NCBI GenBank assembly: GCA_037447655.1
Contig: JBBHKE010002640.1
Coordinates: forward strand, 422,696-486,695
Direction: 5' to 3'
DNA length: 64,000 bases
From: Zygnema cylindricum
Taxonomy: Eukaryota > Streptophyta > Zygnematophyceae > Zygnematales > Zygnemataceae
How positions within the stretch are numbered: the stretch's first letter is position 1; each line of letters starts with the position of its first letter. Positions 737 through 59,040 of the stretch are shown here, piece by piece. The position numbers and the translations under genes were made by a program. The notes under the pieces are model-generated. The model had not been told where the DNA came from and did no database searches. It saw nothing but the letters and a program-made list of their open reading frames with translations.

Positions 737-813
737 AAAAGGTTGAGCCCGGCAGGACTCGAACCTACAACCGGCACAGTGTGGTGTAGCCGTTAGCTCT
801 AACCAGTCTGTCG
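737..813 (-). ncRNA. antisense tRNA-like module in LTR 1 (candidate Pol III unit)
   Basis: On the minus strand the A-box TGGTTAGAGC (796-805) is followed by the B-box GGTTCGAGTC (756-765). A five-pair T-arm (GTAGG/CCTGC around loop TTCGAGT) is visible, then CGGGCTCA and a TTTT run (737-740 on the plus strand). The 5' acceptor strand does not pair with CGGGCTC and the anticodon region is expanded, so this is not a normal tRNA gene. A-box, B-box and T-run in this order are the elements of a type 2 Pol III promoter and terminator. Transcription is inferred, not shown. Confidence 0.6.
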
Positions 814-1503
814 TAGAAGTCCGTTAGGATATATTAGGTTTGATAATTATTTAAACAATATTCAGACAATGAATTTGATTAACGGAATGATGGACGAAAG
901 AACATAGAACCAATTGTTATATAGTGCGAACATTATCTCGCACGAAACAAATGAATTAGACGTTTGTTTCGACGGCCGACATTTAATGTCATATTTAATC
1001 CGACGGCGTATATCACTTGCAAGATCGCGCAATGGTCATTTTGGCGTTTGTGGACGTGGCATGACGTGGCGCCACGTGGAGGGATAACATTTGGTTGCAC
1101 GAATTCCGAGGATCATAAAAACGAGTTAAAAGTGGACACGCGTCCACTAAATGGCTTTGCCGTACACATGCCGTACACAAAGTACATCGGCCGTAGTGCC
1201 TTTTTGTACCCTACAGTCATGTGATTGGTTCGTACGTCAGTAGATAGGGGTTATGAGAGGGGTTTAGGACTTAGAGAATTTGGTAGGTAGTAACCTCTCT
1301 CCCTTTGCGAGTTTGTATAAACTTGGCATCTTTGCCACCTGATAATTAATCGGCTCGTTGGCCGTTTTCACTGATTCTTTTTCCTACAGACTTGAAGATT
1401 CAAAGCTACAAAGGGGTGCAAGCAAATTGTTAGTTTGCCATCTTGGGCAGTAGTTATTGTGGCTTGAAGTGGTTTAGTTAAAAAATATCTAGAGGCTTTC
1501 TTT

Positions 1504-1532
1504 ATTCTGTCGTCTAATGGAGGACACAGAAT
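1504..1532 (+). promoter_or_regulatory. gag start-codon hairpin of LTR 1
   Basis: ATTCTGT (1504-1510) pairs with ACAGAAT (1526-1532). After one bulged base, GTC (1512-1514) pairs with GAC (1523-1525). The gag ATG at 1517-1519 lies in the eight-base loop. The equivalent position in other LTR subfamilies forms a hairpin with different arm sequences (59011, 53787, 29967), so pairing rather than sequence appears to be kept. Confidence 0.65.
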
Positions 1533-2460
1533 TGCAGGTTATGGGCCCACCCTCTAGGGTGCCCACCTTTAATGGATTTGGGTTCATCTATTGGGAAGCC
1601 ATGTTGATGGGGGCTTTGTGCGAAAAACGATACTGGGGTATCGTCAGTGGACAAGTGAAACGTCCAACTTCGGGAACTCCACCAGGATTTGGAGGAGCAA
1701 GGTTTCCTGCAGCAGCAATTGCTTCCGCAGAGGAGGCAGATGATGGGGACAACAATGTGTCACAAAAGGGGAAAGGGAAGGGGACATCCCTCACTCCTAT
1801 TGCCACGACATTGTGAGAAGCGACCGTGTAGACTGTGGAGAACGATACTCAAATGTGGGAAGACGTAAACATGGCTGCCAAGAACTTTATTCTAAGGCAC
1901 CTCACTCAAGCTTTGGCCACCCCTCACCTTCACATTTACAAGGTCGAGGAGTTGTGGGTGAGTTTGGTGGAGATCTATAGAGCTGGTACTATCCAGGAGC
2001 TCCAACTAGCTGAGCAAAAGCTAGTGAGTAACACTTACAAAGGAGGAAAGATGTAAAATTATTGAAATGATCTTTCTTGTTTGTAAATGGAGATGGAAAG
2101 TGTCGGGTGGACAGGTACAATAAAGATGAAAGTTAACAGTCTCATCATGAAGTTACAAATTGAGTACAACAACATAGTGTACCGAGTACACGAAATGAGT
2201 GAAAGTTCATGGAAGTGAATTAGAGTGGTCCGGATGATACTTGTGCAGGAAAACACCATGGAGATTAGGAGAGGAGGAAAGAGCATTCAAGCTCTAGCTG
2301 TAAGAGGGGATCGATGGGGGAAGGACTCGAAGAACCATACAAAGGAGTAACAGATAAACGTGCATGACTAAGGCCCCCAAAGGGCCTTTGTCATTTTTGC
2401 AAAAAGCTGGAACACTTTATCGCGGATTGTGTCAAGCTATCGAAGCTGAGGCTCCAAGGG
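1517..2460 (+). pseudogene. copia Gag, broken
   Basis: It starts in the LTR with MEDTELQVMGPPSRVP. Early blocks FNGFGFIYWE and WGIVSGQV are the N-terminal Gag region of this family. Stops and frameshifts follow (first stop near 1814), but later blocks remain recognisable in three frames: NFILRHLTQAL near 1880, the KGGKM segment near 2040, and a zinc knuckle CHFCKKLEHFIADC (CX2CX4HX4C) at 2389-2430. Gag would form the virus-like particle and bind genomic RNA. The copy is non-functional. Protease follows. Confidence 0.85.
1537..1552 (+). promoter_or_regulatory. half-tRNA primer binding site inside gag
   Basis: GGTTATGGGCCCACCC follows the LTR end. Its first 13 bases are complementary to the anticodon stem-loop of eukaryotic initiator tRNA-Met (TGGGCCCATAACC). 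Drosophila copia and yeast Ty5 are known to use cleaved initiator tRNA this way. Here the site also encodes the Gag residues QVMGPP, because translation starts 20 bases upstream inside the LTR. Confidence 0.85.
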
Positions 2461-2464
2461 AACC

Positions 2465-2854
2465 GTGGAGGGGGTTCTTCCGGAGGGGAAGAACAAGGCA
2501 CTTATGGTCACAAAAGTGATAGGAGAAATCGAGGACGAGTCCCCTGAAGAGGATGGGGAGCTTCTTCTTGACGAGAGACTAGAGGAGAACGAGATCCCTC
2601 GGAGACAGAAGTGTGCCTTTGGAGCAATTCGGGAAGCTCCACATGAAGGATGGATCATCGACTCAGGTGCATCCATGCATATGTGTCGTGATAAGGAACT
2701 CTCCACTAAGCTAATAAAGATCCCTACTGTAGAGATAGAGTATGGGGATGGGAGAGTGGTTACTACAGATCTAGTGGGGTCAGTAGATCTGAAAGTATTT
2801 GTGAAGGGTAAGACTTCTGTACTCACATTCTTAGATGTGCTTTACATTCCTTAG
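2465..2854 (+). pseudogene. copia Gag tail and aspartic protease
   Basis: An acidic segment (ESPEEDGELLLDERLEE) is followed by RRQKCAFGAIRE and the protease active site WIIDSGASMHMC, with the catalytic Asp codon at 2660-2662. This copy keeps DSGAS, unlike the copies at 40051 (NSGAS) and 50536 (DSSVS). The stop at about 2852 interrupts the polyprotein inside the usual FLDVLYIPEL block, and integrase resumes at 2882. Confidence 0.85.
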
Positions 2855-2881
2855 CTGAGAAAAAAAATTGTCTCTACGTCG

Positions 2882-3790: not shown

Positions 3791-3927
3791 ACTAGATGCT
3801 AAGGGAAAACCTAGATATTTTGTATGATATGATGAAGATGTCAATGGATATAGAGTCTACGACTTAGCAAATAGAGATATCATTTTTGTCAAACACCTAG
3901 TTGTCATGAATGTAGGGAAGTCATTTG
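3791..3927 (+). pseudogene. integrase-RT linker fragment ending at a deletion
   Basis: After a stop at 3786-3788, the sequence still matches the GYFVGYDEDVKGYR and IILVKHLVVMDEGKSFDP blocks of the copy at 15918-16050. It breaks off at 3927. Reverse transcriptase, RNase H, the polypurine tract and the first 100 bases of the 3' LTR are missing. The junction shares ACCCACTATAC with LTR 1, which suggests microhomology-mediated joining. Confidence 0.8.
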
Positions 3928-4034: not shown

Positions 4035-4111
4035 AAAAGGTTGAGCCCGGCAGGACTCGAACCTACAACCGGCACAGTGTGGTGTAGCCGTTAGCTCTAA
4101 CCAGTCTGTCG
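4035..4111 (-). ncRNA. antisense tRNA-like module in LTR 2
   Basis: This is the same module as in LTR 1 (A-box TGGTTAGAGC, B-box GGTTCGAGTC, then TTTT at 4035-4038 on the plus strand). It has the same limits: T-arm intact, acceptor stem not paired. Confidence 0.55.
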
Positions 4112-4394
4112 TAGAAGTCCGTTAGGATATATTAGGTTTGATAATTATTTAAACAATATTCAGACAATGAATTTGATTAACGGAATGATGGACGAAAGAA
4201 CATAGAACCAAGTGTTATATAGTGCGAACATTATCTCGCACGAAACAAATGAATTAGACGTTTGTTTCGACGGCCGACATTTAATGTCATATTTAATCCG
4301 ACGGCGTATATCACTTGCAAGATCGCGCAATGGTCATTTTGGCGTTTGTGGACGTGGCATGACGTGGCGCCACGTGGAGGGTTAAAATTTGGTT

Positions 4395-4521: not shown

Positions 4522-4582
4522 CTAGAGCCATGGCTGCCTAGGCTCTCTAGAGAAGACAGGGGGTGAATTAGGTAGACTAACC

Positions 4583-4670
4583 AAAAGTTGGTTGACGGAC
4601 CCAGGAATTGATCCTGGTACCTGCCGTCCGCCAATCCGCATTAGCCGTTAGCTCTAGCCGTTAAGTCTAG
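4583..4670 (-). ncRNA. antisense tRNA-like module in LTR 3
   Basis: On the minus strand an A-box-like GGCTAGAGCTAACGG is followed by GACGG, linker, CCAGG-ATCAATT-CCTGG and CCGTC, so a T-arm sits on a short acceptor-like stem. A TTTT run follows (AAAA at 4583-4586 on the plus strand). The outer stem and T-stem both pair perfectly. Confidence 0.55.
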
Positions 4671-4806
4671 GACAGATATTACGATATATAGGGTTTGATA
4701 AATATATAAATCGTCATATGTAGATTAATCCATTTAAAGGCTAATAGATACTTAGTACATAGATAGAGTTTGATTTAGTACGAAGTACGGTATGTGAACA
4801 AAACGA

Positions 4807-9566: not shown

Positions 9567-10604
9567 TGGCCCTTAGAGTAGGCAGCTCACTAGAAGCCCC
9601 TAAGATAACCCTGACCACTTTGAGTTTCCACAAGAATAACTGCCACCTTGACAGTTAAAAACTTTGATCAACTTCACCCCTATTAAAAGAAGACTCCTCG
9701 AGTCGATAGCAAAAAGAATCTATGAATTTGCTCCCTGAGCAGTAAGTTATGAAGGGTCAAAGTTGACCTTTTGTACAATAGCTCTTAGGGAGAGAGGGGT
9801 CTACCTACCAAATTTTCTATCTACTAAATCCTTGTCTAAACCCTATACTACTAGAGTACGGCACCAATCAAATTAGTGTGTTATACAGAAAAGTACAGGT
9901 GCGGGTGTACTTTTCTGTACGGCCATCGTACGACATGGCCAAAATGTCGACACCTGCCATATCCACATTTGCTCCCGTATTCTCCGAAGATGCCGCAAGC
10001 CAATGTGATTGTGCCACGTGTCAATTAACGAGGCGATGACCGAAAAATGCCAAAGCGCCCATTCCGCGATCTCGACATTTATCCTGGCAGTTCGATCAAG
10101 ATCGACTTTTAATTCTAGCCGTTGAAAATAGATGCGTGGTATTTGTTTCGCTGTCGAAACAAATGCGCAGTGTTAGTTTCGTGGAGTACCGTACACCCTA
10201 CATTTACAAATATTATATCTATGTCAAAAAAATGTTCGCACCGTTAAATGAAATTGTCTACGTATATATTTATAAATATGTATGAAACCGTATATACCTC
10301 AACACTGATCCTAGACTAACGGGATAAAGCTACAGGCTACTGCTTGACTTGACAGACGGCAGGTACCAGGATCAAATCCTGGGTCCGTCATTTCCCTTTT
10401 GGTAAACTTACCCAACTACTACATATCTCTCTCTTTGGACAGCATGGGCAGCCATGGCTCTAGCTTCCTCTCTAACCTTTGGTGATTGCGACAAGTGTGG
10501 GAGTTGGAGAGAGAGTTAGAGGCAGACTGCCTCTGCTTTTTGTGATCTGTATCTTTACATGTTTTAAACCTAGAAAATACAAAATAAAACCTCTAGTTTC
10601 TACA
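9547..10604 (-). repeat. LTR 4 (5' LTR of a minus-strand element)
   Basis: On the minus strand it starts TGTAGAAACTAGAGG and ends AAAGTTGCA beside the primer site, 1,058 bp. It contains the U3 hairpin region (about 10485-10530), CCATGG (10453), the tRNA-like module (10315-10400), the U3 palindrome ATTTGTTTCG/CGAAACAAAT near 10140-10165, G-box CCACGTG near 10013 and a GTAC cluster near 9850-9930. Confidence 0.88.
10315..10400 (+). ncRNA. tRNA-like module in LTR 4 (antisense to element)
   Basis: GACGG (10355-10359) pairs with CCGTC (10385-10389), enclosing CCAGG-ATCAAAT-CCTGG (10366-10382), a perfect T-arm. TTTT follows at 10397-10400. An A-box-like AACGGG..AAAGCTACAGGCTA lies upstream. It has the same layout as LTR 3 but is read on the plus strand because the LTR is inverted. 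Confidence 0.55.
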
Positions 10605-12621: not shown

Positions 12622-13545
12622 TGTATAATTTTGTGACCTCTGCTGGCCCACAAAGTATCCACCTTATATGAAGTCTCTAAGATAATATTTGCCCTTCAAA
12701 CTTTCCCACTAAATAAGTGCTACCCAAGCACACAAGTATTTAGACCACCTTCACCTCCTAAATGCCCGACTCCTCTTAGCCGAACGCAAAAATAATTACG
12801 AAATACGCTCCCTAGAGCAGTTAATTGTGGTTGGTCAAAGATGACCTTTATAGTTACAAACTCTCTTAGCGAGGGGTACCTTAATTTCACTAAGTCCTCG
12901 TCTACCTACTCACACCTACCTGCTACTAAACTTTAGTCCACTAGGAACACTATATATTATAAGAAGGTACAGAGGCCGATATTCTTATTGTATGGCCATT
13001 GACGACATGTCGTTTAAGGTGACGCTTGTCAAATCGGGAGCCATGGTTCCTCCTCCCATCTTCTCCGGTATCCAATAATATGGCGCCACTTGGCATCACG
13101 TGACGCTATCTCCAAATGCCGCCAAAAGCTCATTCCAAATGGCGGCTGCAACCACGGTCGTCCGGTCAAAAGTGTTTAGACGGTTCAGATTCGCGTCTGT
13201 GCATGAATTGTTTCACATTCGCCTCGTAGCCAGTTTTGTGTGAATTAGCCGTTGCGTTATAGTTTAAGTATTTATCAAAGCTGACAAGTGTATCTCTTCT
13301 TTAACGACTAAATGGATAAGTCGGCAAGCCTTTTTTGACTTTAAAGGACCCAGGTTCAAATTCGTATAAGACTAACATTTTGGTAAAAAATGTCCTCACT
13401 TCAATCTACCACCTTCTAAAATAAGGCTGCAACCATGGCGTGTCATTGATCCCCTCTCTCTCTTTAAAGTCTGACTAAAATAGAGAAGTGAACAATAAAA
13501 TGATAAGACCTGGAAACTACCTAACAAAAACCATTAATGTTTTCA
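12622..13545 (-). repeat. LTR 5 (3' LTR, old copy)
   Basis: On the minus strand it starts TGAAAACATTAATGG after a polypurine tract (13546-13563) and ends AAATTATACA, 924 bp. The CCATGG (13435), tRNA-like module (13300-13381) and G-box-like CACGTG near 13097 are present. It is clearly diverged from the others; a related fragment is at 30000-30284. Confidence 0.8.
13300..13381 (+). ncRNA. tRNA-like module in LTR 5
   Basis: A-box TGGATAAGTCGG and B-box GGTTCAAATTC are followed by TTTT at 13378-13381. The T-stem is weak and the acceptor stem does not pair. The same module appears at 30048-30120. It is antisense to the LTR. Confidence 0.45.
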
Positions 13546-16266: not shown

Positions 16267-17313
16267 TGAAACTCTGAGACCTCCATAAGTCCTCAGAGTG
16301 GACAGCTTTCAAGAAGCCTCTAGGATAATCCTGACCCCTTTGTGTTTCAGCAAAAAGAACTGCCACCCTGGCAGACAAAAAACTCCGACCACCTGCACCC
16401 CTGTGAAGGCAAGACTCCCCTGAGTCGATAGCAAAAAGAATCTCTAAATTTTCTCCCCTGAGCAGTAAGTTATGGAGGGTCAAAGTTGACCTTTTGTACA
16501 GAAGCTCTCTGGGAGAGAGGGTCCTATCTTCTAATTTTTCTAAGTCCTATCTCTCTCACAGACTCTATCTACTCATGTACGGAACCAATCAGATTACAGT
16601 TCTGTACGCAAAAGTACAACTGCCGGTGTACTTTATGTACGTACACTGTACGACATGGCCTAAATGTCCACACGTGGTATGTCCGGATTCGCTCCTTTAA
16701 TCCTCGGAGATGCCGCGCTCCAATGTAACATCACCACGTGTCATCCGATGTGGCGATGCCCACAAACCGCCGAATTCTTCTTCCGCGATCTCGGCGCTTA
16801 TTCCGGCCGTCCGATTAAACTCGCATTTGATCGTAGCCGTAATAAATACATGCGCGGTATTTGTTTCGCTTACGAAATCAATGCGCGGTATTGATTTCTT
16901 ATCCGTACCGCAATTCGTATTTTACATACCAGATCTATGTATCTCGTTAACAATTATATTTAAATGATATATCCTACGAATTAATGTTTAATTAATTATC
17001 GTACTACATATTACGTAAGACTACTTCTAGATTTAACGGCTATGGCTACCGGCTATCTACTATTTGTCGGCTGGCAGGTACTAGGATCAAATCCTGTGGC
17101 CGGCACATACCTTTTAGTAAATAATCCCCTAGCTAATATAAATTTCCCGTAACCCTCAGGATAGCCTAGGTAGCCATGGCTCTAGCTTCCTCTCCAATTT
17201 CTCAGTGACTGCGACAAGTTTGAGAGTTGGAGAAAGAAGTTAGAGGTAAACTGCCTCGGCTTCTTTATTTCTATTCAGACCTAGAAAATACTTTAAAACC
17301 ATTAATTTCTACA
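16267..17313 (-). repeat. LTR 6 (3' LTR, minus strand)
   Basis: On the minus strand it starts TGTAGAAATTAATGG after a polypurine tract and ends CTCAGAGTTTCA, 1,047 bp. Visible: CCATGG (17175), tRNA-like module (17037-17115), palindrome remnants near 16860, G-box CCACGTG near 16734, GTAC cluster near 16575-16660, and hairpins TGCTC/GAGCA, GACTC/GAGTC and CTGCCA/TGGCAG in the leader. It cuts the integrase fragment at 16266. Confidence 0.9.
17037..17115 (+). ncRNA. tRNA-like module in LTR 6
   Basis: TGTCGGC (17065-17071) pairs with GCCGGCA (17099-17105) and encloses a T-arm-like CTAGG-ATCAAAT-CCTGT. TTTT follows at 17112-17115. The outer stem sequence differs from LTR 4 (GACGG/CCGTC) and LTR 15 (TGCCGGC/GCCGGCA), yet each pairs. 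Confidence 0.55.
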
Positions 17314-21237: not shown

Positions 21238-21752
21238 TTAGAAATTAATGGTTATTTTTATTATTTTCTAGGTCTAAATTTATTATTGAAAAGAAGCCGA
21301 GGTAGTCTGTCTTTAACTCCTCACTTCAGCTCCCACACTTGTCGCGGTCGGAGAAAGTTGAAGAGGGAGATAGAGCAAGGGCTGCCTGTGGTATTTATAG
21401 AGTGATAGGCATGTGTTTTAGTAGATTCACTAAAAAGGTACTTGACAGACCCACGATTTGATCCTGGTACCTACCGTCTGCCAATCTAGCCGGTAACGCT
21501 TAGCTTTATCCTACAAATCTAAGATCAGTGTTGAGACATATAGGGTTTGACAGATATATAAACTATTACGCGTGAACAAACTCATTTAACTAAAACTATA
21601 GACGTCGCGCATCGATACAGTTTTGTAAAGTACGGATTACAGTACAAATACGAAACGGATACCGCGCATTTTGTTTCGACAGCGCAACAAATATCGCGCA
21701 ATGATTTAGGACGGCTATGATTAAGATCTAGTTTTGATCTTTCTGGCACATC
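21238..21752 (+). repeat. LTR 9, 5' half
   Basis: It starts TTAGAAATTAATGG (first base changed from TG), carries the U3 hairpin CTTCAGCT/AGTTGAAG (21325-21360), the antisense module (21432-21510) and part of the palindrome near 21665-21700. It is cut at about 21752, before the promoter and primer site. An ACC-rich stretch follows. Confidence 0.8.
21432..21510 (-). ncRNA. antisense tRNA-like module in LTR 9
   Basis: On the minus strand GGCAGAC, eight bases, CCAGG-ATCAAAT-CGTGG and GTCTGTC form a seven-pair outer stem (one wobble) on a T-arm, followed by TTTTT (AAAAA at 21432-21436 on the plus strand). The outer stem sequence is unlike LTRs 4 and 6 but still pairs. Confidence 0.55.
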
Positions 21753-22894: not shown

Positions 22895-23547
22895 ATCTGA
22901 CAACCTTCACCCCTTTGAAGGCAAGACTCCCCTAAGTCGATAGCAAAAAGAATCTCTAAATTTGCTCCCTTGAGCAATAAGTTGTGGAGGGTCAAAGTTG
23001 ACCTTTTGTACAGAAGCTCTCTTGGAGAGAGGGTCCTATCTACCAAATTTTCCCAAGTCCTATCTCTCTCTAAAACTCTATCTACTGACGTAAGACACCA
23101 ATCATATTTTTGTGGTGTACAGAAAGGTACAGGTGCCGGTGTACTTTCTCTACGGACATTGTACAACATAGACAAAAAGTCGACACATGTCGTATTCGGA
23201 TTTGTTTCCGTAATCTCGGGAGATGCCAAAATCCAATGTCATGGTGCCACGTGTCATCCAATGTGGCGATTACCACAAACCGCCAAAATCCTTATCCGCG
23301 ATCTCAGCATTCATTCTGGCTGTCTGATTAAATGCAGATTTCAATCTTAAGCGTCATATATAAATGCGCGGTATTCGTTTCGCTATCAAAACAAATACGT
23401 CGTACTTGTTTCTTCTCTGTACCTTAATCCGTATTTTATATAACTGAATCTATGTTTCCAGTAAATAGTTACCGTTAAATGAATTAGTCGACGTGGAAAC
23501 ATTTATAGATTTATCAAACCCTATATGACCTTACATTATTTTTAGAC

Positions 23548-23631
23548 TAAACGGCTAAAGCTACCAGCTATCGCCAGTTTGACGGAAGGTAGGTACCAGG
23601 ATCAAATCATGGTTCCGACAACTACTCTTTT
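23548..23631 (+). ncRNA. tRNA-like module in LTR 10
   Basis: GACGGAA (23581-23587) can pair with TTCCGAC (23613-23619) except for one position, around CCAGG-ATCAAAT-CATGG. TTTT follows at 23628-23631. It is the same subfamily as LTR 11, where the T-stem is perfect. Confidence 0.5.
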
Positions 23632-26934: not shown

Positions 26935-27723
26935 TATCTCTCTCTAAAAATCTATCTACTAACGTACGGCACCAATCATATTACTGTGGTGTGCAGAAAG
27001 GTACAGGTGTCGGTGTACTTTTTGTACGAACATTGTACTACATGGCCAAAAAGTTGACACATGTCATATCCGGATTTATTTCCGTAATCCCAGGGGATGC
27101 CAAAATCCAATGTCATGGTGCCACGTGTCATCCAATGTGGCGATTACCACAAAACCGCCAAAATCCTTTTCACGATCTCGGCATTCATTTCGGCCGTCGG
27201 ATTAAATGCAGATATCAATCTTTGCCGTCATAAATAAATGTACGGTATTCGTTTCGCTATCAAAACAAATGCGCGGTACTTGTTTTCTTCTCCGTACCTT
27301 AATCCGTATTTTATATAACTGAATCTATGTATCCAGTAAATAGTTACCGTTAAATGAATTAGTCGACGTGGAAACATTTATAGATTTATGAAACCCTATA
27401 TGACCTTACACTATTCTTAGACTAAACGGCTAAAGCTACCAGCTATCGCCAATTTGACGGAAGGTAGGTACCAGGATCAAATCCTGGTTCCGACAAGTAC
27501 TCTTTTAGTAAATCAACTAGTCTACTACCCGTATATCAACTAATCTACTACCCGTAAATCTCTGGATAGCATTGGCAGCCATGGCTCTAGCTTCCTCTCC
27601 AAATTTTAGTGACTGCAACAAGTGTGGGAGTTGAAGAGAGGAGTTAGAGGCAGATTGCCTCGGCTTCTTTTCTACATTTTATTTTAGACCTTGAAAATAC
27701 TAAAAGAACCATCAATTTCTACA
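26935..27723 (-). repeat. LTR 11 (5' LTR of nested element, truncated)
   Basis: On the minus strand it starts TGTAGAAATTGATGG at 27723 and runs to about 26935, lacking the leader, gag start and primer site. It is strongly similar to LTR 10 over the shared part. Next to it at 27724 the host gag resumes with AGAAAAAG; host sequence left of LTR 10 ends GAGGAAAAAA, consistent with an A-rich five-base duplication with one mismatch. Confidence 0.87.
27425..27506 (+). ncRNA. tRNA-like module in LTR 11
   Basis: GACGGAA (27456-27462) and TTCCGAC (27488-27494) form the outer stem with one mismatch, around a perfect T-arm CCAGG-ATCAAAT-CCTGG. TTTT lies at 27503-27506. The upstream A-box-like region is AACGGCTAAAGCTACC. 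Confidence 0.55.
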
Positions 27724-29116: not shown

Positions 29117-29999
29117 TGTTGAAAAAGAAGTAATTAATATTCACTTCATAATTTACACTCTAGAGAGAAGAGAGAGAGAGAGTCACTATGGATGCCCCCA
29201 TAGTAAGAAAGAAATAGGCTGGCAGGAAGACAGACTGAAAGATGAACAAAATGATGTCGTGGACAGGATTTGATCCTGGGACTGCGCCCTACAATATAGA
29301 CGTACGCCTTATCCAATAAGGCGTTAACGAAACGATACAATGTGAATCGATAATTAATTCAAACGTCACTCAACGTCACTTTCACTTAAACAGACCAAAT
29401 TGACGATTAAAACATATAGACAGCGGCGCTCGCGGACGCGAATCTAACCGTGTAAAATATATGATCAGACGGACGTCGTCGCCACCGCCAAACCCAAGGG
29501 AATCTTTAGCGGCTTTCACACATAGCAGCGCGGTATGCCACGTGGCGCCACATATTTGGACGCCGCAAAAGATGGGTGGAGGAACAATGGCTCCCAAGTT
29601 GACAAGTGTCAACCAAAAGGCCATGGTTGTATAAGAAGTACAATCCGCCACTCTACCTTCTTTTACTACACACTCTTTTAATTCGTCTAGGAAACAGTAG
29701 TAGGTAGCTGTGAGTAGGACTTTAGGGACTAAACGTGTTTGAGGCGCCACTCTCCAAGTGACCATTTGTATTTATAGGCCATCTTTGGCCAACCATTACT
29801 TACTGCTCAGGGGAGCAAATTCACTGATTCATTTTGCGTTTGACTCAATGGAGTCTTCTCCTCATCGAAGTGAGGGTGGCTAGGTATTAATGTGCCTGGG
29901 CGCCACCTATTCAATGAGAAAGTGGAAGGGGAAAATATTATCTTAGAGGCTTTACATAGGTTGTTCATTCTGTGGGATAATGGAGACCACAGAATTTCA
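29117..29999 (+). repeat. LTR 12 (3' LTR)
   Basis: TGTTGAAAAAGAAG to CCACAGAATTTCA, 883 bp. It belongs to a subfamily with a shorter U3 and no ACACTTGTTG loop. Antisense tRNA-like module at 29248-29335, CCACGTGGCG near 29538, TATTTATA near 29770, leader hairpins, and a perfect nine-pair hairpin (ATTCTGTGG/CCACAGAAT, 29967-29995) around the gag ATG at 29980. No primer site follows. Confidence 0.9.
29248..29335 (-). ncRNA. antisense tRNA-like module in LTR 12
   Basis: On the minus strand the D-arm-like GCCTTA-TTGGA-TAAGGC and B-box GGATCAAATCC are present, with TTTT beyond the 3' end (AAAA at 29248-29251 on the plus strand). The ATGGATAAGGC type resembles tRNA-Arg genes. The acceptor stem does not pair. 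Confidence 0.48.
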
Positions 30000-32141: not shown

Positions 32142-33206
32142 TGCATAAATTGATGGTTCCTTTAGCATTTTCTAGTTCTAAAATGAAATGCAGAAAGAAG
32201 CCGAGGCTGTGTGCCTCTAACTTCTTTCTCCAGATCCCACACTTGTTGCAGTCACTGAGAAGTTGGAGAGGAAGCTAGAGCCATGGCTACCTAGGCTTTC
32301 CAGAGGTTTACGGGAAATAGATTAGATGATTAACGGATAGGTAGTTTATTTACTTAAAGGGTAGATGTCGTGTCCAAGATTTGATCTTGGTACCAGCCGC
32401 CCGTTAAAGCCGCCAGTAGCCAGTAGACTTATCCATGAAGCCTAGGACTATAGTTACATGCTTTAGGGTTTATTAGATATTTAAATGTTACCACGTAGGA
32501 TAAATCATTTAACGGCAACTATTTACGGAATACATAGATTTAGTTATGTAAAAGTACGATTACCATTCGGATAAGAAACGAGTACCGCGCATTTGTTTTT
32601 TTAAACGAAACAAATATCGCGCAAGTATTTATGACGGCTACGATTAAAATCTGCATTCAATCGGACGGTCGGAAGAATGCCGAGATCGCGAAAGAGAATC
32701 TCAACGGTTTGTGGTCATCGCCACATCGGATGACACGTGGCACAATTACATTGAATCGCAGCATCTATGTGAATTACGGGACCGAATGCGGATATGACAT
32801 GTGTCGACATTTAGGCCATGTCGTACAATATTTGTACAGAAAGTACACTAGCAGCTGTACTTTTGTGTACGACAATGTAATATGATTGGTGCCGTACATC
32901 AGTAGATAGAGTTTAGAGAGAGATAGGACTTAGAAAAATTTGGTAGATATGACCCTCTCTCCCAAAGAGCTTCTGTACAAAAGGTCAACTTTGACCCTCC
33001 ATAACTTACTGCTCAGGGGAGCAAATTCATATATTTTTTTTGCCATCAACTCAAGGGAGTCTTGCCTTCACAAAGGTGAAGGTGGTCAAAGTTTTTTTCT
33101 GCTAGGGTAGCATTTATTCTTTTTGAAACAAAAAAGGGTCAGGGTTATGCTTGAGGCTTCTTGCAAGCTGTCCATTCTGAGGATCTATGGAGGTCTCTAA
33201 GTTGCA
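32142..33206 (+). repeat. LTR 16 (5' LTR of element A)
   Basis: It starts TGCATAAATTGATGG and ends CTCTAAGTTGCA before the primer site, 1,065 bp. U3 hairpin, CCATGG (32283), antisense module (32362-32450), palindrome region near 32590-32620, G-box GACACGTGGC near 32731, GTAC cluster 32820-32900, and leader hairpins TGCTC/GAGCA, CTCAA/GGGAG and CCTTCAC/GTGAAGG. It is very similar to LTR 17 at 42988, so these are the two ends of one element. Confidence 0.9.
32362..32450 (-). ncRNA. antisense tRNA-like module in LTR 16
   Basis: On the minus strand the T-arm is CCAAG-ATCAAAT-CTTGG, a perfect stem in which the usual G-C pair is replaced by A-T on both sides relative to CCAGG/CCTGG. The outer stem does not pair. 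Only TTT, not TTTT, follows. Confidence 0.45.
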
Positions 33207-34173: not shown

Positions 34174-35076
34174 TGTTGAAATGAAGTTATTATTATTCAC
34201 TTCTTCATTTAGACTCTAGAGTTAAGAGAGAGGGAGAGAGTCACCATGGTTGCCGCCATAGTCAAAAAGAAACAGGCAGACATGCACACAGATTGATAGA
34301 TTACCAAAATGTTGCCTCAAAGACGATTTGAACCTTGGTCTGCGGAGTACTTTGTAGACATCCGCCTTAACCATTTAGGCGTTAATGAAATGATACAGGT
34401 ATGTGGTTCGGTAAATAATTAAAGTGTTACGCAAAATGTCATTTTCCATTAAACATACCAAAATTGACGATACGTCATCTATAATCAAACGACGCTCGCG
34501 GACGCGAATCTAACCGTGTAAAAAACATTATAGGACGGACGTTGTCGCCCCCGCCAAACCCGCATAAATCTTCGGCGGCTTTCGGACATAGTGGCGCGTT
34601 GTGTCACATGGCGCGACGTCAATGGACGCCGGAAAGGATGAGAGGAGGAACGATGGCTCCCAAGTAGACAAGTGTCAACTAGAAGGCCATGTTGTACAAA
34701 GGTCGTACAAGAAGTACAATCGGACACTGTACCTTCTTCTACTATACACTCTTTTGATTGGCCTAGAGTAGAGTAGTAGGTATTTGTGAGTAAGAGTTAA
34801 CGGACTTAGCGTGTTTGAGGCTCCTCTCTCTAGATGACCTTTTGTATTTATATGTCATCTTTGGCCAGCCATAACTTATTGCTCAAGGGAGCAAATTCAG
34901 TGATTCTTTTTGCGTTTGACTCAGGGGAGTCTTGTCCTCACAGGGGTGAAGTTGGTCAGAATATTTGTGTGCCTGGGCGGCACTTATTGAGTGAGAAAGT
35001 GAAAGGGGCAAATATACTCCTAGAGGCTTTACATAGGCTGCTCATTTTGTGGGTTAATGGAGACCACATAATTTCA
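34174..35076 (+). repeat. LTR 14, inserted in gag of element A
   Basis: TGTTGAAATGAAG to CACATAATTTCA, 903 bp, subfamily of LTR 12. Antisense module 34306-34392, gag start at 35058 within TGTGG...CCACA arms. No primer site follows its end, which is abnormal for a 5' LTR. Its second half recurs almost unchanged at 39450-39880. Confidence 0.88.
34306..34392 (-). ncRNA. antisense tRNA-like module in LTR 14
   Basis: On the minus strand GCCTAAA can pair with TTTGAGGC (one mismatch), enclosing A-box TGGTTAAGGCGG, a GCGGA/TCCGC stem with an enlarged loop, and B-box GGTTCAAATC. TTTT lies just beyond (AAAA at 34306-34309 on the plus strand). It resembles a shrunken tRNA with merged acceptor and D arms. 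Confidence 0.52.
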
Positions 35077-39184: not shown

Positions 39185-39449
39185 AATGATCATTGTGTCT
39201 GCCGGCCGGCAGGTACAAGGATCAAATCCTGCCGCCGGCATATACATTTTAATTAAATATATAAACCCTAATATAAAATTCCCGTAAACCTCAGGATAGC
39301 CAAGGTAGCCATGGCTCTAGCTTCCTCTCCAATTTCTCAGTGACTGCGACAAGTTTGAGAGTTGGAGAGAGAAGTTAGAGATAGACTGCCTCGACTTCTA
39401 TATTTCTTTTCAGACCTAGAAAATACTAATAAAACCATTAGTTTCTACA
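39185..39449 (-). repeat. LTR 15, 5' part only
   Basis: On the minus strand it starts TGTAGAAACTAATGG and matches the first 265 bases of LTR 6 (CCATGG, U3 hairpin, tRNA-like module). It is joined directly to the LTR 14 copy at 39450. Confidence 0.8.
39199..39250 (+). ncRNA. tRNA-like module in LTR 15
   Basis: TGCCGGC (39200-39206) pairs perfectly with GCCGGCA (39234-39240) around AGG-ATCAAAT-CCT. TTTT lies at 39247-39250. A-box sequence is truncated. Confidence 0.5.
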
Positions 39450-42987: not shown

Positions 42988-44047
42988 GTAAAAATTGATG
43001 GTTTTTTTAGTATTTTCTAGGTCTAAAATGAAATGTATAAAGAAGTTGAGGCTGTGTGCCTCTAACTTCTCTCTCCAGATCCCACACTTGTTGCAGTCAC
43101 TGAGAAGTTGGAGAGGAAGCTAAAGCCATGGCTACCTAGGCTATCCAGAGGTTTACGGGATATAGACTAGTTGATTTACGGATAGGTAGTTTATTTACTA
43201 AAAGGGGAGATGTCGAGTCCATGATTTGATCCTAGTACCTGCCGCCCGTTAAAGCCGCTGGTAGTGGGTAGACTTATCCATTAAATCTAGGACTAGAGTT
43301 ACATGCTTTAGGGTTTGTTAGATATTTAAATGTTACCACGTAGGAAAATTCATTTAACGGCAATTGTTTACGAGATACTTAGATTCAGTTATGTAAAAGT
43401 ACAGATTACGGTACGGATAAAAAACGAGTACCGCGCATTTGTTTTTTTAAACGAAACAAATACCGCGCAAGTATTTATGACAGCTACGATTGAAATCTGC
43501 ATTCAATCCGACGGTCGGGAAGAATGCCGAGATCGCGGAAGAAAATCTCGGCGGTTTGTGGTCATCGCCACATCGGATGACATGTGGCACAATTACATTG
43601 AATCGTGGCATCTTCGGGAATTACAAGATCGAATCCGGACATGTGTCGACATTTAGGCCATATCGTACAATATTCGTACAGAAAGTACACCGCCAGCAGT
43701 ACTTTTGTGTACGGCGGTGTAATATGATTTGTGCCGTACATCAGTAGATAGAGTTTAGAGAGAGATAGGACTTAGAGAAATTTGGTAGATAGGACCCTCT
43801 CTCCCAGAGAGCTTCTGTACAAATGGTCAACTTTGACCCTCTATAACTTACTGCTCAGAGAAGCAAATTCAGAGATTTTTTTTGCTATCGACTGAAGGGA
43901 GTCTTGCCTTCACAAAGGTGAAGGCAATCAAAGTTTTTGTCATTCGGGGTGGTATTTATTCTTGCTGAAACACAAAGGGGTCAGGGTTATCCTAGAGGCT
44001 TCTTGCAAGCTGTCCATTCTGAGGATCTATGGAGGTCTCAGAGTTGA
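42988..44047 (+). repeat. LTR 17 (3' LTR of element A)
   Basis: It starts TAAAAATTGATGG (the leading TG is lost) and ends CTCAGAGTTGA, about 1,060 bp. It is very like LTR 16 in the U3 hairpin, CCATGG, module (43200-43290) and promoter region. The gag start hairpin CTGAGGATCT-ATGG-AGGTCTCAG is intact near 44020-44042. No matching target duplication with the left flank AAATA is visible. Confidence 0.87.
43200..43290 (-). ncRNA. antisense tRNA-like module in LTR 17
   Basis: B-box GGATCAAATC and TTTT (AAAA at 43200-43203 on the plus strand) are kept; the T-stem has one mismatch and the outer stem is poor. It is an older or decayed version of the module in LTR 16. Confidence 0.42.
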
Positions 44048-48400: not shown

Positions 48401-49400
48401 TGTAAAAATTGATGGTTCTTTTAGTATTTTCTAGGTCTAAAATGAAATGCATAAAAAAAGCCGAGGCAATTTGCCTCTAACTCCTCTCTTCAACTCATAC
48501 ACTTATTGAAAGTTGGAGAGGAAGCTAGAGCCATGGCTGCCTATGCTATCCAGAGAATTACGGGTAGTAGATTAGTTGATATACGAGTAGAAGATTAGTT
48601 GATATACGAGAGCGAGTAGCTTTATCCATTAAGTCTAAGACTAGTGTTAGGTCATGTAGGGTTTGATAATTATATGAATGTTTCCACGTCAACTAATTCA
48701 TTTAACAGTAACTATCTACTGGATAAATAGATTCGGTTATGTAAAGTATGGATTAAGGTACGGAGAAGAAACAGGTACCGCGCATTTCTTTCGATAGCGA
48801 AATGAATACCGCGCATGTATTTATGACGGCTATGATTGAAATATGCATTTAATCAGACGACCGGAAAGAATGTCGAGATCGCGGAAGAGGATTTCAGCGG
48901 TTTGTGGTCATCGCCACATCGCATGACACGTGGCACCATGACATTGGATTTTGGCATCTCCAGGGATTACGGAAACAAATACGGATATGACATTTGTTGA
49001 CTTTTTGGCTATGTCGTACAATGTTCGTACAGAAAGTACACCGGCACCTGTACCTTTCTGTACAACATAGTAATATGATTGGTGCCGTACTTCAGTAGAT
49101 AGATTTTTAGAGAGAGATATGACTTAGAAAATTTTGGTAGATAAGACCCTCTCTCCCACAGAGCTTTTGTACAAAAGGTCAACTTTGACCCTCCATAACT
49201 TACTACACAGGGGAGCAAATTTAGAGATTCTATTTGCTATCGACTCAAGGGAGTCTTGCCTTCACACGGGTGCACGTGGTCACAGTTTTTGTCTGCCAAG
49301 GTGGCAGTTATTCTTGCTGAAACACAAAGGGGTCAGGGTTATCCTAGAGGCTACTTCCGAGCTGCCCTTTCTGAGGACCTATGGAGGTCTCAGAGTTGCA
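48401..49400 (+). repeat. LTR 18 (5' LTR of element B)
   Basis: TGTAAAAATTGATGG to CTCAGAGTTGCA, 1,000 bp. It pairs with LTR 21 (57949-59040); flanks ATTAA and ATTGA are a near-perfect target duplication. U3 hairpin and CCATGG are present, but the T-arm half of the tRNA-like module is deleted near 48605, making it the one copy without a B-box. G-box GACACGTGGC near 48925, GTAC cluster near 49015-49095, gag ATG at 49381. Confidence 0.9.
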
Positions 49401-52921: not shown

Positions 52922-53005
52922 AAAATAGTGCCTCTGGCCTGATTTGAACCGGATCTGCAGATTACTATGTCCACCCACCCTTATCCATTAAGGCACTAAC
53001 AAAAC
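52922..53005 (-). ncRNA. antisense tRNA-like module in LTR 19
   Basis: On the minus strand GTGCCTT (52990-52996) pairs with GAGGCAC (52928-52934) over seven bases (one wobble), enclosing A-box ATGGATAAGG and B-box GGTTCAAATC. TTTT follows (AAAA at 52922-52925). ATGGATAAGG and GTGCCT recall tRNA-Arg; the acceptor and D arms seem merged by a small deletion. Confidence 0.55.
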
Positions 53006-55775: not shown

Positions 55776-56926
55776 TGTTGAAATTTATGTATTTTCTAGG
55801 TCTGTATTGGAAAAATAAATAGAGTGTTGAAAAACGGTAATTAAGAGTTCACTTCTATATTTTAGTTAGAATGTAAAGAGAGAGAAAGTGAGGACCAAAG
55901 GCGGGCCATGGCTGCTGCGTTATTTAGAAGGAGGCAGAATGAATTAGAAGGTATTTTATTTGATTTATTAAAATAGTGCCTCTGGCCGGATTTGAACCGG
56001 ATCTGCGTTTTACTATGTCGACCCACCCTTATCCATTAAAGCACTAACGAAACGATACACGTGAAATGTTCCACGCATATATATTTATTGATCCAAATGA
56101 CTAATTCACACCAGACTAACAAAAACGTGCATTAATCAATTCATGTATGGAACCGAATCGAAGCCGTATAAAAACAACTGATCGGTCGGCCACCATTACA
56201 GCCGCCACCCACAATAAGCATTCGGTGGCCTTTGGGGATAACCTCACGCGGTGCCACGTGGCGCCACATTATTTGATATCGGAGAAGATGGGAGGAGGAA
56301 CCATGGCTCCCGATTTGGCAGATGTCACCTTGTAGACCATGTCGTACAATAGTCGTACAATAATTACATCGCCCATCGTACCTTCTTGTACTATATAGTG
56401 TTCGTATTGGATTAGGGTTTAGTAGTAGGTAGTTGTGAGTAGGCAGACCAAGACTTAGTGATATTTAGGTACCTCTTAGTAGTAGGTAGTTGTGAGTAGG
56501 CAGACGAAGACTTAGTGATATTTAGGTACCTCTCTTTAAGAGAGCTTGTATCTATAAAGGTAATCTTTGACCAGCCATAACTTACTGCTCAGGGGAGCAA
56601 ATTTAGTGAATCTTTTTGCTGCACACTCAGGGGAGTTTAAGCTACACATGGGTGTAGTTAGTAAAAGTTTTTACCTACCTTGGTGTCTACATTTCTAAAG
56701 GAAATTCAAAGTGGGGAATGTTATCCAAAACACATATTTTTTCTTGGCATTCTATGGGGGAATTGATCACATAGAAAGTCTTCTTTCTCAAGGGTGAAGT
56801 TGTAATAGGGTTCTAATTGTCAAGGGGTCAATCATTTGGGTTTATATAAACTTGGAGTTTGCACTATCTAGATTTGTTTTTTTGGATCTGCGAATTATGT
56901 TTGGCAATGGAGCCCATAAAATTTCA
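55776..56926 (+). repeat. LTR 20 (3' LTR of element N1)
   Basis: TGTTGAAATTTATG to CATAAAATTTCA, 1,151 bp; followed by ATTTT duplication. Antisense module 55970-56044: GTGCTTT pairs with GAGGCAC, TCCGG-TTCAAAT-CCGGC T-arm, then TTTT. A 57 bp unit is tandemly duplicated (56420-56476 and 56477-56533), which explains the length difference from LTR 19. Few point differences from LTR 19 indicate that N1 is the youngest complete insertion here. Confidence 0.93.
56420..56533 (+). repeat. 57 bp tandem duplication in LTR 20
   Basis: TAGTAGTAGGTAGTTGTGAG begins both units (56420, 56477), which differ at one or two positions. LTR 19 has a single unit, so the duplication happened after insertion. Confidence 0.88.
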
Positions 56927-56931
56927 ATTTT

Positions 56932-57948
56932 TATTGCAATTTATGTTGATGATTTTTTTGTTTAAAAAAATCAATGGAAAAAATTATTAAACTGAAAATC
57001 AATCTTAAAGGGGAATTTGAGATGAAGGATATGGGGGAGGCAAGATATATTTAGGGAATTCAAGTAGAAAGAGACTGAGAAATAAAGATTATAAGATTGA
57101 CTCAAAAAGAAACAATACGCATCATGTTTGAAAAAATTCAAATGGATAAGGCTAATAGTTGTACAACTTCAATGGAGTTAAATAAAGGAAGATAAATGAG
57201 TGAGGAAGAAGGAGTCATAGTCTTAGAAGAGGAATTAAGTCTTGAAGAACAAAAGTTCATGCGAACTATTCCTTACAAGCAATTAGTGGGAAGCCTAATC
57301 TATTTTGTGAATTGTACCTTGTCGAATTTAGCTGCAGCTGTAGGTGTGGTGAGTAGAAGTCTTAATGCTCCCACTAAAAGAGATAGGGAGGCGACTAAGA
57401 GAGTCCTTAGATATTTGATAGGAACTAGGGATCTATGGTTCCATTTGACTGAGGATAATACTGACATCACTATTTAGAGTGATGCTAGTTATGGTGATGC
57501 TCTGATGAGGAGATGTACTTCTGGATATGTATTATATGTGGGTGATGGGGCTTGTTGTTGGAGTAGCAAACAGAAAAAGGTTATTGCTCGGTCCAACATG
57601 GAGGTTGAGTATATGGCCTCTTGCTCTGCTGTAAAAGAATTGATGTGGGTCAAGTCTTTGCTTGGTGAGCTTGGTTACCTTCAGAGTGGTGTGCAATTTT
57701 TTTTTTGTGATAATCAAGTAGCAATAGCTATTTCTGACAATCCTAAACATCATTTTAAAGACAAAGACAAGGACATTAGACTCACCTTTGTTAGAGAGAA
57801 AGTATAAATAAAATAATCAGTGTGGAGTACTAACGAGATAGCCAGATGGTAGCAGATATGATGACCAAACTTGTGCCTTCCCCTAAGCTAAATTTTTGCA
57901 GGGAGAAGTGTGGTCTAAAATTAAAGAGTGACTAGAAAATAAGGGGAG
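56932..57948 (+). pseudogene. RT core end and RNase H of element B
   Basis: It resumes at IAIYVDDFFV with YVDD at 56942-56953, then KDMGEARYI, KANSCTTSMELNKGR with a stop at 57193, EQKFMRTIPYKQLVGSLIYF and RDREATKRVLRYLIGTRDLW. TAG at 57475-57477 replaces Trp before SDASY. RNase H CCWSSKQKKVIARSNMEVEY and KELMWVKSLLGELGYLQSGV follow, then polypurine AAATAAGGGGAG. It continues the RT interrupted at 52727. Confidence 0.88.
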
Positions 57949-59040
57949 TGTAGAAATTGATGGTTCTTCTAGTATTTTATAGGTCTAAAATGAAATGCAA
58001 AAAAGAAGCCGAGGCAATCTGCCTCTAACTCCTCTCTTCAACTCCTACAATTGTTGCAATCACTAAAAGTTGGAGAGGAAGTTAGAGCCATGGCTGCCTA
58101 TGCTATCCATAGATTTATGGGTAGTAGATTAGTTAATATACGGGTAGTGGATTAGTTGATATACGAGTAGTAGATTAGTTTATTTACTAAAAGAAAGGCT
58201 GTCACACCCAGATTTTGATCATGGTACCTACCTTCCGTCAAAGCTGCCAATAGCTTGTAGCTTTATCCATTTAGTATAAGACTAGTGTTAGGTCGTATGT
58301 GGTTTGATAATTATATGAATGTTTCCACGTCAACTAATTTATTTAACGGTAACTATTTACTGGATACATAGATTCGGTTATGTAAAGTACGGATTAAGGT
58401 ACGGAGAAGAAAGTGGTACCGCGCATTTCTTTCGATAGCGAAACGAATACCGCGTAGGTATTTATGACGGCTATGATTGAAATTTGTATGTAATCGGACA
58501 GCGGAATGAATGCCGAAATCTTGGAAGAGGATTTCGGCGGTTTGTGGTCATTGCCACATCGGATGACACGTGGCACCATGACATTGGATTTTGGCATCTC
58601 CAAGGATTACGGAAACAAATCCGGATATGACATTGTCGACTTTTTGGCCATGTCGTACAATGTCCGTACAGAAAGTACACCGGCACATGTACCTTTCTGT
58701 ATAGCACACTAATATGATTAGTGCCGTAGGTCACGAGATAGAGTTTTAGAGAGAGATAGGACTTATAAAATTTTGGTAGATAGGACCCTCTCTCTCAGAG
58801 AGCTTTTGTACAAAAGGTCAACTTTGACCCTCCATAACTTACTACTCAGGGGAGCAAATTCAGAGATTCATTTTGCTTTCGACTCACGGGAGTCTTGCCT
58901 TTACACCAGTGAAGGTTTTTAGAGTTTTTGTCTACCAGGGTGGCACTTATTCTTGCTGAAACACAAAGGGGTTAGGGTTATCCTAGAGGCTTTCTTGTAA
59001 GTTGCCCTTTCTGAGGACCTATGGAGGTCTCAGAGTTGCA
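57949..59040 (+). repeat. LTR 21 (3' LTR of element B)
   Basis: TGTAGAAATTGATGG to CTCAGAGTTGCA, 1,092 bp, partner of LTR 18. U3 hairpin CTCTTCAACT/AGTTGGAGAG, CCATGG, decayed antisense module (58199-58280, with TTTT), palindrome remnant near 58430, G-box GACACGTGGC near 58565, GTAC cluster near 58650-58700, leader hairpins, and gag start hairpin CTGAGGACCT-ATGG-AGGTCTCAG (59011-59033). Confidence 0.92.
59011..59033 (+). promoter_or_regulatory. gag start-codon hairpin of LTR 21
   Basis: CTGAGGACCT (59011-59020) pairs with AGGTCTCAG (59025-59033) with one bulged G. The four-base loop ATGG contains the start codon (59021-59023). Arms are unrelated in sequence to those at 53787 and 29967. Confidence 0.62.

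What the first reader, a model, noticed from the sequence alone, without database searches (positions are those of the whole stretch)
737..58280. LTRs of the dominant family carry an antisense tRNA-like Pol III-type unit
Seen: at the same place in LTRs 1-6, 9-17 and 19-21 the strand opposite to the element reads A-box-like sequence, B-box (GGTTCGAGTC, GGATCAAATCC or GGTTCAAATC), a T-arm hairpin, and in nearly all a TTTT run within about 4-12 bases (737, 4035, 4583, 10397, 13378, 17112, 21432, 23628, 27503, 29248, 34306, 39247, 43200, 52922, 55970, 58199; LTR 16 has only TTT). Known: A-box, B-box and TTTT are the parts of a tRNA-type Pol III gene. Inference: the LTRs carry an antisense Pol III unit, which could yield a regulatory RNA, bind TFIIIC as a boundary, or interfere with Pol II silencing.
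Basis: partly seen in the sequence, partly recalled or inferred. Interest (0 to 1): 0.9.

Follow-up and report, generated by a model that had tools for sequence, protein, structure and literature searches.

The report
Backwards tRNA-like unit in Copia LTRs
A large family of plant-type Copia jumping genes carries, backwards inside its end repeats, a small tRNA-derived unit with the sequence parts of an RNA polymerase III gene, and those parts have been kept while the sequence between them changed, so a second, opposite-strand transcription unit is likely but not yet shown.

Summary
Eighteen LTRs in the window carry the unit on the strand opposite to the element: 17 with A and B box, one (39219) truncated before the A box. 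A four-part descriptor finds 12 full sites, all in LTR units, against 0.03 per shuffle. In 13 LTRs averaging 59% identity, eight tRNA key positions (G18, G19, A21, G53, T55, C56, A58, A73) are invariant, while the A-B spacer is less conserved than the LTR average. TTTT follows in 17 of 18 units. Hand-named stems covary. Further subfamilies in a 353-Mb plant-like genome carry it, some at 5.35-5.40 kb spacing, as expected for the two LTRs of full-length Copia. It is not a tRNA gene: Rfam's tRNA model and default ARAGORN miss it. Closest known are Helenus and Cassandra, short non-autonomous TRIMs with a tRNA or 5S unit in the LTR. Here LTRs are long, Copia genes are present, and the unit is antisense, so it cannot make the template RNA. 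I read it as a maintained antisense Pol III-type unit, probably giving a ~90-nt RNA and/or a TFIIIC boundary. Transcription and binding are untested.

The parts
530..1536 (+). LTR (TG..CA, ends read by eye) carrying unit 756; element sense is +
   Evidence: PPT at 522 and PBS at 1537; LTR-profile hit 509-1540; sequence
737..816 (-). antisense unit 756: A box 796-809, B box 756-765, A73 744, TTTT
1314..1321 (+). TATA-like TGTATAAA of the presumed sense Pol II promoter (motif only)
1537..1551 (+). PBS GGTTATGGGCCCACC, complementary to the anticodon stem-loop of initiator tRNA-Met (host tRNA recalled, not fetched)
4035..4114 (-). antisense unit 4054 (near-identical LTR to 756)
4583..4671 (-). antisense unit 4605, type I with 7-bp closing stem and 8-nt linker
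10310..10400 (+). antisense unit 10369 (element on - strand; PBS 9532-)
13302..13381 (+). antisense unit 13353 (u13351 in the alignments), D stem GAC/GTC
17026..17115 (+). antisense unit 17084
21433..21523 (-). antisense unit 21455
23541..23631 (+). antisense unit 23599
27416..27506 (+). antisense unit 27474
29248..29326 (-). antisense unit 29267, type II, D arm like host tRNA-Arg(TCG)
32356..32446 (-). antisense unit 32378, only TTT
34306..34384 (-). antisense unit 34325, type II
39195..39250 (+). truncated unit 39219: B box, A73 and TTTT but no A box
43200..43291 (-). antisense unit 43223
48607..48645 (-). remnant unit: A box kept, B box and T arm deleted
52922..52998 (-). antisense unit 52941, long outer stem in the predicted fold
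55970..56046 (-). antisense unit 55989
58189..58280 (-). antisense unit 58226: B box 58212-58221, A box 58260-58273 (limits partly read by eye)

Best explanation
An ancestor of this Copia lineage acquired a tRNA-gene-like Pol III unit, antisense, in the U3 part of its roughly 1-kb LTR. In some lineages the D arm or T arm still resembles tRNA-Arg. Active elements have since kept the promoter parts (A box, B box, T-run). SHOWN: position, orientation, invariance of the tRNA/Pol III key bases against a freely changing spacer, the T-run, covarying stems, and presence in several subfamilies including very recent copies. INFERRED: TFIIIC and Pol III bind it and make a roughly 90-100-nt RNA that runs away from the sense Pol II promoter (TATA-like box about 0.5 kb downstream in the 756 LTR) and stops at the T-run. 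INFERRED: the gain to the element is local. A TFIIIC/Pol III complex upstream of the Pol II promoter would act as a boundary against silent chromatin and against read-through from the flank, and in the 3' LTR the short RNA would be antisense to the element's own 3' end. An antisense unit cannot make the template RNA, which is the role proposed for Helenus.
For: Eight key positions are invariant in 13 LTRs; the same spaced pattern at 561 placements along the LTR reaches at most 0.872 elsewhere, and 0 of 200,000 random 8-column sets reach 1.0. A box 0.73 and B box 0.81 flank a spacer of about 0.49, with an LTR mean of 0.588. Descriptor: 12 full sites against 0.03 per shuffle. TTTT 4-8 nt after A73 in 17 of 18 units against 3.9% of LTR positions. 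Covariation: 12 of 16 pairs with double changes, score 0.273 against 0.144 +/- 0.018 shuffled and 0.05-0.09 slid. D arm matches host tRNA-Arg(TCG) at 84-90% over 20-25 nt in three units. Over all fetched DNA, of 101 distinct units 88 have the A box, 87 the B box, 97 A73, 94 TTTT and 74 all four. Unit pairs 5.35-5.40 kb apart fit the two LTRs of full-length elements. One 756-type unit sequence found identical at eight loci folds better on the antisense strand (-44.9, z -4.1 to -5.4 over repeated shuffles) than on the sense strand (-34.7, z -2.6 to -3.4). For the window units the antisense energy is lower in 13 of 16.
Against: No transcript or binding data. Rfam's tRNA model does not find the LTR units even at E 10 in the window; on eight other loci the only match on a unit is a weak tmRNA one (L006, 9 bits, E 1.5). 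ARAGORN finds none at default (window; young copies). Folding of the window units does not resolve the strand once composition is allowed for: mean z -1.06 antisense against -0.99 sense. In the 4605 type the sense z is the more negative in 6 of 6, and the 17084 type folds weakly on both strands. In the young 756 type the best fold puts the B box in a different hairpin, not in a T arm. G.U against A.C pairs do not decide the strand (T stem 6:2, D stem 6:5, closing stem 6:5). RNAalifold found no consensus pair on the longer alignment. Only 10 of 30 host tRNA genes have TTTT within 25 nt downstream, so the T-run is not an obvious host terminator rule. In old copies the B box is lost more often than the other parts. 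Type I units mostly have only weak best matches to host tRNAs of several kinds. The 13 aligned LTRs were chosen because they carry the unit, and the aligner is drawn to shared motifs.
Confidence: 0.52

Rival explanations
1. Passive relic: a tRNA gene or SINE head inserted antisense into an ancestral LTR and has been copied along with the element without function.
For: Units in old copies decay freely (11 of 26 distinct 29267-type units without a B box). The tRNA fold is incomplete: no Rfam tRNA or default ARAGORN hit. One LTR survives with the B box deleted.
Against: Between subfamilies the A and B boxes stay invariant while the bases between them change more than the LTR average, and stems covary. 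A SINE head would not be followed at once by a T-run.
Confidence: 0.2
2. Sense-strand function: the region matters as a hairpin near the 3' end of the sense RNA, or as DNA sites for the Pol II promoter, and only looks like an antisense tRNA.
For: Folding z-scores of the two strands are alike for the window units and the sense strand is the better in 6 of 6 4605-type loci. Other LTR islands are as conserved as the B box and are not Pol III parts as far as I can see.
Against: The invariant bases are exactly the tRNA D-loop and T-loop bases in the antisense reading, with tRNA spacing to A73, plus a T-run on that strand. Antisense folding is clearly stronger in the youngest 756 type.
Confidence: 0.15
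3. Second half of a primer-binding site: the sense RNA copy of the unit pairs with the T and D arms of primer initiator tRNA-Met, as the U3 segment of Ty3 does.
For: The PBS fits the anticodon stem-loop of initiator tRNA-Met (tRNA recalled). Ty3 has 3' PBS segments in U3 (passages of PMC5371799 and PMC4974528). The type I T arm resembles the initiator T arm (recalled sequence).
Against: The T stems differ among units (CCAGG/CCTGG, CCAAG/CTTGG, GTAGG/CCTGC, TCCGG/CCGGC) while the six PBS copies behind LTRs of this family differ from the commonest form by at most one base, and three D arms are like tRNA-Arg. The host initiator tRNA gene could not be fetched.
Confidence: 0.06
4. Landing pad: the unit attracts new insertions of the same family, as tRNA genes do for Ty1 and Ty3.
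For: The window is densely nested, and Pol III-gene targeting by LTR elements is known (PMC5911963 passages). One LTR (39219) breaks off inside its unit, cause unknown.
Against: Weak only: I did not map insertion points. In the 14 loci holding more than one unit, units start at least 0.44 kb apart, and the one nested insertion that I followed lies about 0.34 kb from the B box of its host LTR.
Confidence: 0.05

Closest known systems
Helenus (TRIMs with a tRNA-like sequence in the LTR; Kojima 2024, PMC10886601)
   Same: A and B boxes in an LTR; tRNA mostly not functional by prediction; most fungal Helenus families have a PBS on a tRNA anticodon loop, and initiator tRNA-Met is among the tRNAs used.
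   Different: Helenus is 311-1263 bp in all, with LTRs of up to 323 bp, non-autonomous, and thought to make its template RNA by Pol III. Here LTRs are about 1 kb, unit pairs lie 5.35-5.40 kb apart, Copia coding regions are present, and the unit is antisense.
Cassandra and Ajax (TRIMs with a 5S rRNA-derived Pol III promoter in the LTR)
   Same: A Pol III-type internal promoter inside an LTR, with conserved promoter motifs.
   Different: 5S-derived rather than tRNA-derived, non-autonomous; in Cassandra the Pol III promoter replaces the Pol II promoter (PMC10853983 passage).
Ty3 bipartite primer-binding site in U3
   Same: tRNA-complementary sequence in U3 on the sense strand.
   Different: The unit follows tRNA/Pol III conservation and its stems covary, rather than staying complementary to one primer tRNA.
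tRNA-derived SINEs as boundaries (B2 SINE; PMC8136502, seen only as a search listing)
   Same: A tRNA-type Pol III promoter as possible boundary.
   Different: Here the unit is built into an LTR, with a T-run directly after the tRNA part.
tRNA genes
   Same: G18, G19, A21, G53, T55, C56, A58 and A73 with correct T-arm spacing; T-run.
   Different: Anticodon arm and acceptor not recognisable as in a tRNA; missed by the tRNA covariance model.

Membership tests
Helenus / TRIMp3 | tRNA-like sequence with A and B box in the LTR | tested here: met
Helenus / TRIMp3 | short non-autonomous element (311-1263 bp) | tested here: not met
   near-complete LTR-profile hits 0.96-1.12 kb (the profile itself spans about 1.07 kb); unit pairs 5.35-5.40 kb apart; Copia gag, integrase-region and RT domains in the window. 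The 3.1-3.2-kb spacing of some 4605-type units may mark a shorter relative.
Helenus / TRIMp3 | unit oriented to transcribe the template RNA | tested here: not met
   unit antisense to PBS and PPT; for Helenus the sense orientation is my reading of the paper, which has no occurrence of 'antisense'
Helenus / TRIMp3 | PBS on a tRNA anticodon loop (most fungal Helenus; not defining for all) | tested here: met
   PBS GGTTATGGGCCCACC; match to initiator tRNA-Met rests on the recalled tRNA
tRNA gene | match to the tRNA covariance model / ARAGORN at default | tested here: not met
   window; eight and twenty other loci
tRNA gene | D- and T-loop invariant bases and A73 at tRNA spacing | tested here: met
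Pol III type 2 gene | A box, B box, terminator-like T-run on one strand | tested here: met
   (17 of 18 units with A box; 17 of 18 with TTTT)
Pol III type 2 gene | transcription by Pol III, TFIIIC binding | not testable with these tools
   no RNA or ChIP data
SINE | tRNA head followed by body and tail | tested here: not met
   T-run directly after the tRNA part in 17 of 18 units; no search for a SINE with the same head was made
Ty1/copia (Pseudoviridae) | copia-type gag, integrase region, RVT_2 reverse transcriptase | tested here: met
   (domains on separate broken ORFs in the window; not assigned to one intact element)
Ty3-like bipartite PBS | U3 segment complementary to the primer tRNA | tested here: inconclusive
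   T stems vary while PBS does not; host initiator tRNA not fetched

The most novel reading that the evidence does not exclude
A coding-type LTR retrotransposon runs two polymerases: Pol II on the sense strand and a built-in, tRNA-derived antisense Pol III unit in U3, maintained by selection over deep subfamily divergence. The unit works as a portable boundary and/or a structured antisense RNA that protects the element's promoter from silencing or read-through. This would be a new regulatory layer for autonomous retrotransposons.
Probability: 0.35. Interest if true: 0.82.

Novelty: new variant of a known kind. Interest (0 to 1): 0.62.

Why it matters
Pol III promoters inside LTRs are reported for tiny non-autonomous elements, where they are thought to make the template RNA, and Kojima argues that autonomous partners must use Pol II. 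A long-LTR, coding-type Copia family with the unit in antisense suggests that a Pol III-type module can be kept for some other reason. That makes a direct test possible of whether retrotransposons use TFIIIC/Pol III against silencing. It also warns that LTR-borne B boxes may add TFIIIC sites across a genome.

Tried and rejected
Rfam tRNA model and ARAGORN on the window and on young copies: no LTR unit found except with ARAGORN at a threshold lowered to 75% or less. RNAalifold on the wide MAFFT alignment predicted no pairs; the pair count with a tRNA-guided structure on the shorter alignment did show covariation, but I named that structure after seeing the sequences. Strand test by folding energy and by G.U against A.C: not decisive. 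Ty3-like bipartite PBS and landing-pad ideas: weighed and ranked low. Origin of the unit from initiator tRNA-Met: set aside because three type II D arms match host tRNA-Arg (against about 30 fetched host tRNAs, not the whole set). Paper searches for an antisense tRNA-like or Pol III unit in an LTR listed no such report beyond Helenus, Ajax and Cassandra, but two lists were capped (15 of 34 papers, 12 of 62) and the library lacks most subscription papers. A Culex Gypsy element with tandem tRNA copies at its PBS (PMC3286476 passages) suggests that primer tRNA can be captured next to an LTR; I saw no case inside an LTR.

Rows dropped: the 13-LTR alignment leaves out 4054, 27474, 30091, 39219 and 55989. 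One search's tallies leave out 4054, 27474 and 39219 (closing stem: nine type I units). One search's means leave out 4054 and 27474. One search counts distinct units only, drops hits that do not span A box to acceptor, and groups by locus, so a group can hold a neighbouring unit of another type and its three 'other' units may be the window's own. Searches folded 12 and 20 loci of those held.
Full report
WHAT IS THERE. The window (64 kb, G000 contig C1979:422696-486695 of a 352.8-Mb assembly) is dense in Copia-type elements. Pfam finds gag_pre-integrs, SH3_retrovirus, RVT_2 and copia-type gag on separate broken ORFs. A profile of 13 LTRs finds 26 LTR pieces in the window; the near-complete ones span 0.96-1.12 kb, with a profile of about 1.07 kb. 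The first LTR runs from 530 to 1536 by my reading. The motif GGTTATGGGCCCACC (at most 1 mismatch) occurs at seven places in the window. Six follow an LTR of this family and one (19388-) lies in another copia-type gag ORF. It is complementary to the anticodon stem-loop of initiator tRNA-Met (tRNA recalled), as in the half-tRNA or anticodon-loop priming of copia and Ty5 (PMC5371799 passages).

THE UNIT. On the strand opposite to the element, 18 LTRs carry a B box (GGTTCGAGTC, GGATCAAATC, GGTTCAAATC and close variants), and 17 of them also an A box with GGNTA. One more LTR keeps only the A box. All 18 have A exactly 15 bases after A58, the place of the tRNA discriminator base 73. TTTT starts 4-8 bases after that A in 17 of 18 (16; 58226), against 3.9% of LTR positions. 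The G19-to-G53 distance is 36-47 bases in the correctly anchored units. Two broad forms exist. Type I (4605, 10369, 17084, 21455, 23599, 27474, 32378, 39219, 43223, 58226) has a 7-bp stem, intact to decayed, closing the T arm through an 8-base linker. Type II (29267, 34325, 52941, 55989, 13353, 30091) and the 756 type lack the linker. Against about 30 fetched host tRNAs, units 29267, 52941 and 55989 match tRNA-Arg(TCG) in the D arm at 84-90% over 20-25 bases, and 756 matches tRNA-Arg(TCT) in the T arm at 87% over 23 bases; most type I units have only weak best matches, to tRNAs of several kinds.

MORE THAN CHANCE. A descriptor (GWTCRA plus T stem of at least 4 bp, A73, TTTT, upstream GGNTA) gives 12 full sites in the window, all LTR units, against 0.03 per dinucleotide shuffle (60 shuffles, maximum 1). 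At three or more of the four added features there are 19 sites, 17 of them LTR units, against 1.4 (maximum 5). The copies are homologous, so this does not count independent origins; it says that the pattern is not random.

CONSTRAINT. In the 13-LTR alignment (942 usable columns, mean pairwise identity 0.588) the B-box window reaches 0.81, the fourth-best 12-column island of the LTR. The A box reaches 0.73, the 25-column spacer block 0.49, and the T-run block 0.46, because the run shifts by a few bases. G18, G19, A21, G53, T55, C56, A58 and A73 are all invariant, while position 54 varies (A or T). The same spaced pattern at 561 placements along the LTR reaches at most 0.872 elsewhere, and no random 8-column set of 200,000 reaches 1.0. 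I chose the eight columns after seeing the alignment, the LTRs were selected for having the unit, and the aligner favours shared motifs, so these figures are flattering. The contrast with the spacer inside the same unit is less affected. Other islands of the LTR are as conserved as the B box.

STRUCTURE. With D stem, T stem and closing stem named by hand on alignment A2, 12 of 16 pairs show changes on both sides. The covariation score is 0.273 against 0.144 +/- 0.018 when 3' letters are shuffled (0 of 500 reach it) and 0.05-0.09 when partners are slid. RNAalifold found no consensus on the longer alignment. Which strand's RNA is constrained is not settled. For the window units the antisense energy is lower in 13 of 16, but z-scores are equal (-1.06 and -0.99). 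The 756 type has the more negative z on the antisense strand in 5 of 6 loci and the 4605 type on the sense strand in 6 of 6. One 756-type sequence, identical at eight loci, folds at -44.9 kcal/mol antisense and -34.7 sense. In that type the best fold places the B box in a hairpin just before TTTT and not in a T arm. What is common to the lineages is therefore the promoter-like base pattern, not one RNA fold.

REST OF THE GENOME. DNA queries with four units gave 40-41 scored matches each, out of 735 to 3,383 first-look candidates, so copy number is probably high but is uncounted. Pairs of matches lie 5.35-5.39 kb apart for the 756 type and 5.40 kb for the 17084 type, as expected for both LTRs of a Copia of ordinary length; I did not read the DNA between them. 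For the 4605 type some lie 3.1-3.2 kb apart, perhaps a shorter relative. Over all fetched DNA, 101 distinct units were scored: A box 88, B box 87, A73 97, TTTT 94, all four 74. By locus group, all four: window 13 of 15, 17084 type 11 of 12, 4605 type 30 of 35, 756 type 7 of 10, 29267 type 11 of 26, other 2 of 3. Among 29 29267-type copies, agreement is 0.92 in the A box, 0.87 in the B box, 0.93 at the T-run, 0.80 in the spacer and 0.85 overall; those copies were found by similarity to one query. Only 10 of 30 host tRNA genes called by ARAGORN (organellar-like ones and pseudogenes not removed) have TTTT within 25 bases, which I cannot explain and which weakens the reading of the T-run as a standard host terminator.

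HOW IT MOST LIKELY WORKS. The unit sits in U3, about 0.5 kb upstream of a TATA-like box in the 756 LTR, and reads away from it. The element would thus have a Pol II promoter for its own RNA and an opposed, short Pol III unit. Because it is antisense it cannot make the template RNA, the role proposed for Helenus (PMC10886601; abstract, section 3 part 1 of 2, section 4, figure legends and passages seen). The remaining gains are local: recruiting TFIIIC/Pol III as a boundary or against read-through, or making a short RNA antisense to the 3' LTR part of the sense RNA. I think the promoter reading more likely than not; the gain is inference.

KNOWN KINDS. It works like the Pol III modules of Cassandra, Ajax and Helenus, but it fails the size, non-autonomy and orientation features of Helenus, so I do not file it as Helenus. 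It is not a tRNA gene by model score, and not a plain SINE because the T-run follows at once. The Ty3-like bipartite PBS is unlikely because T stems change while the PBS does not. Paper searches (two of the lists capped) showed no report of an antisense tRNA-like Pol III unit in an autonomous-type LTR; subscription papers are mostly not held.

VERDICT. A real, conserved feature and a new variant of the LTR-with-Pol-III-unit kind; function plausible but untested.

Noticed in passing
window 40282-40353 +: A tRNA-like gene (ARAGORN tRNA-Gln CTG, Rfam 53.6 bits) overlaps a Copia-like ORF (40253-41002), so it looks like an insertion of a tRNA or tRNA-derived repeat in a retrotransposon.
   Followed up: partly
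window 1517-1551 and 33187-33221: The likely gag start codon lies in the last bases of the LTR and the frame appears to run through the PBS, so the PBS would be inside the gag coding sequence (read by eye).
   Followed up: partly
G000 contigs C403, C2064, C1728: 4605-type units occur 3.1-3.2 kb apart, unlike the 5.35-5.40 kb of other types, suggesting a shorter, perhaps non-autonomous relative.
   Followed up: no
loci L009-L038: Only 10 of 30 distinct host tRNA genes have TTTT within 25 bases downstream, although 22 of 30 have a TATA-like upstream stretch.
   Followed up: partly
window LTRs, about 76 bases past the B box, e.g. 677-684 and 4527-4534: A palindromic island around GCCATGGC is one of the most conserved parts of the LTR (0.82) and is unexplained.
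   Followed up: no
window 19388 -: A different copia-type gag ORF also carries the same PBS motif inside its frame (one mismatch).
   Followed up: no
window 59452-59874: A long TC microsatellite (about 213 copies of the 2-base unit).
   Followed up: no
window 36617 +: A lone B-box-like site with T stem, A73 and TTTT but no A box, outside the LTR-profile hits.
   Followed up: no
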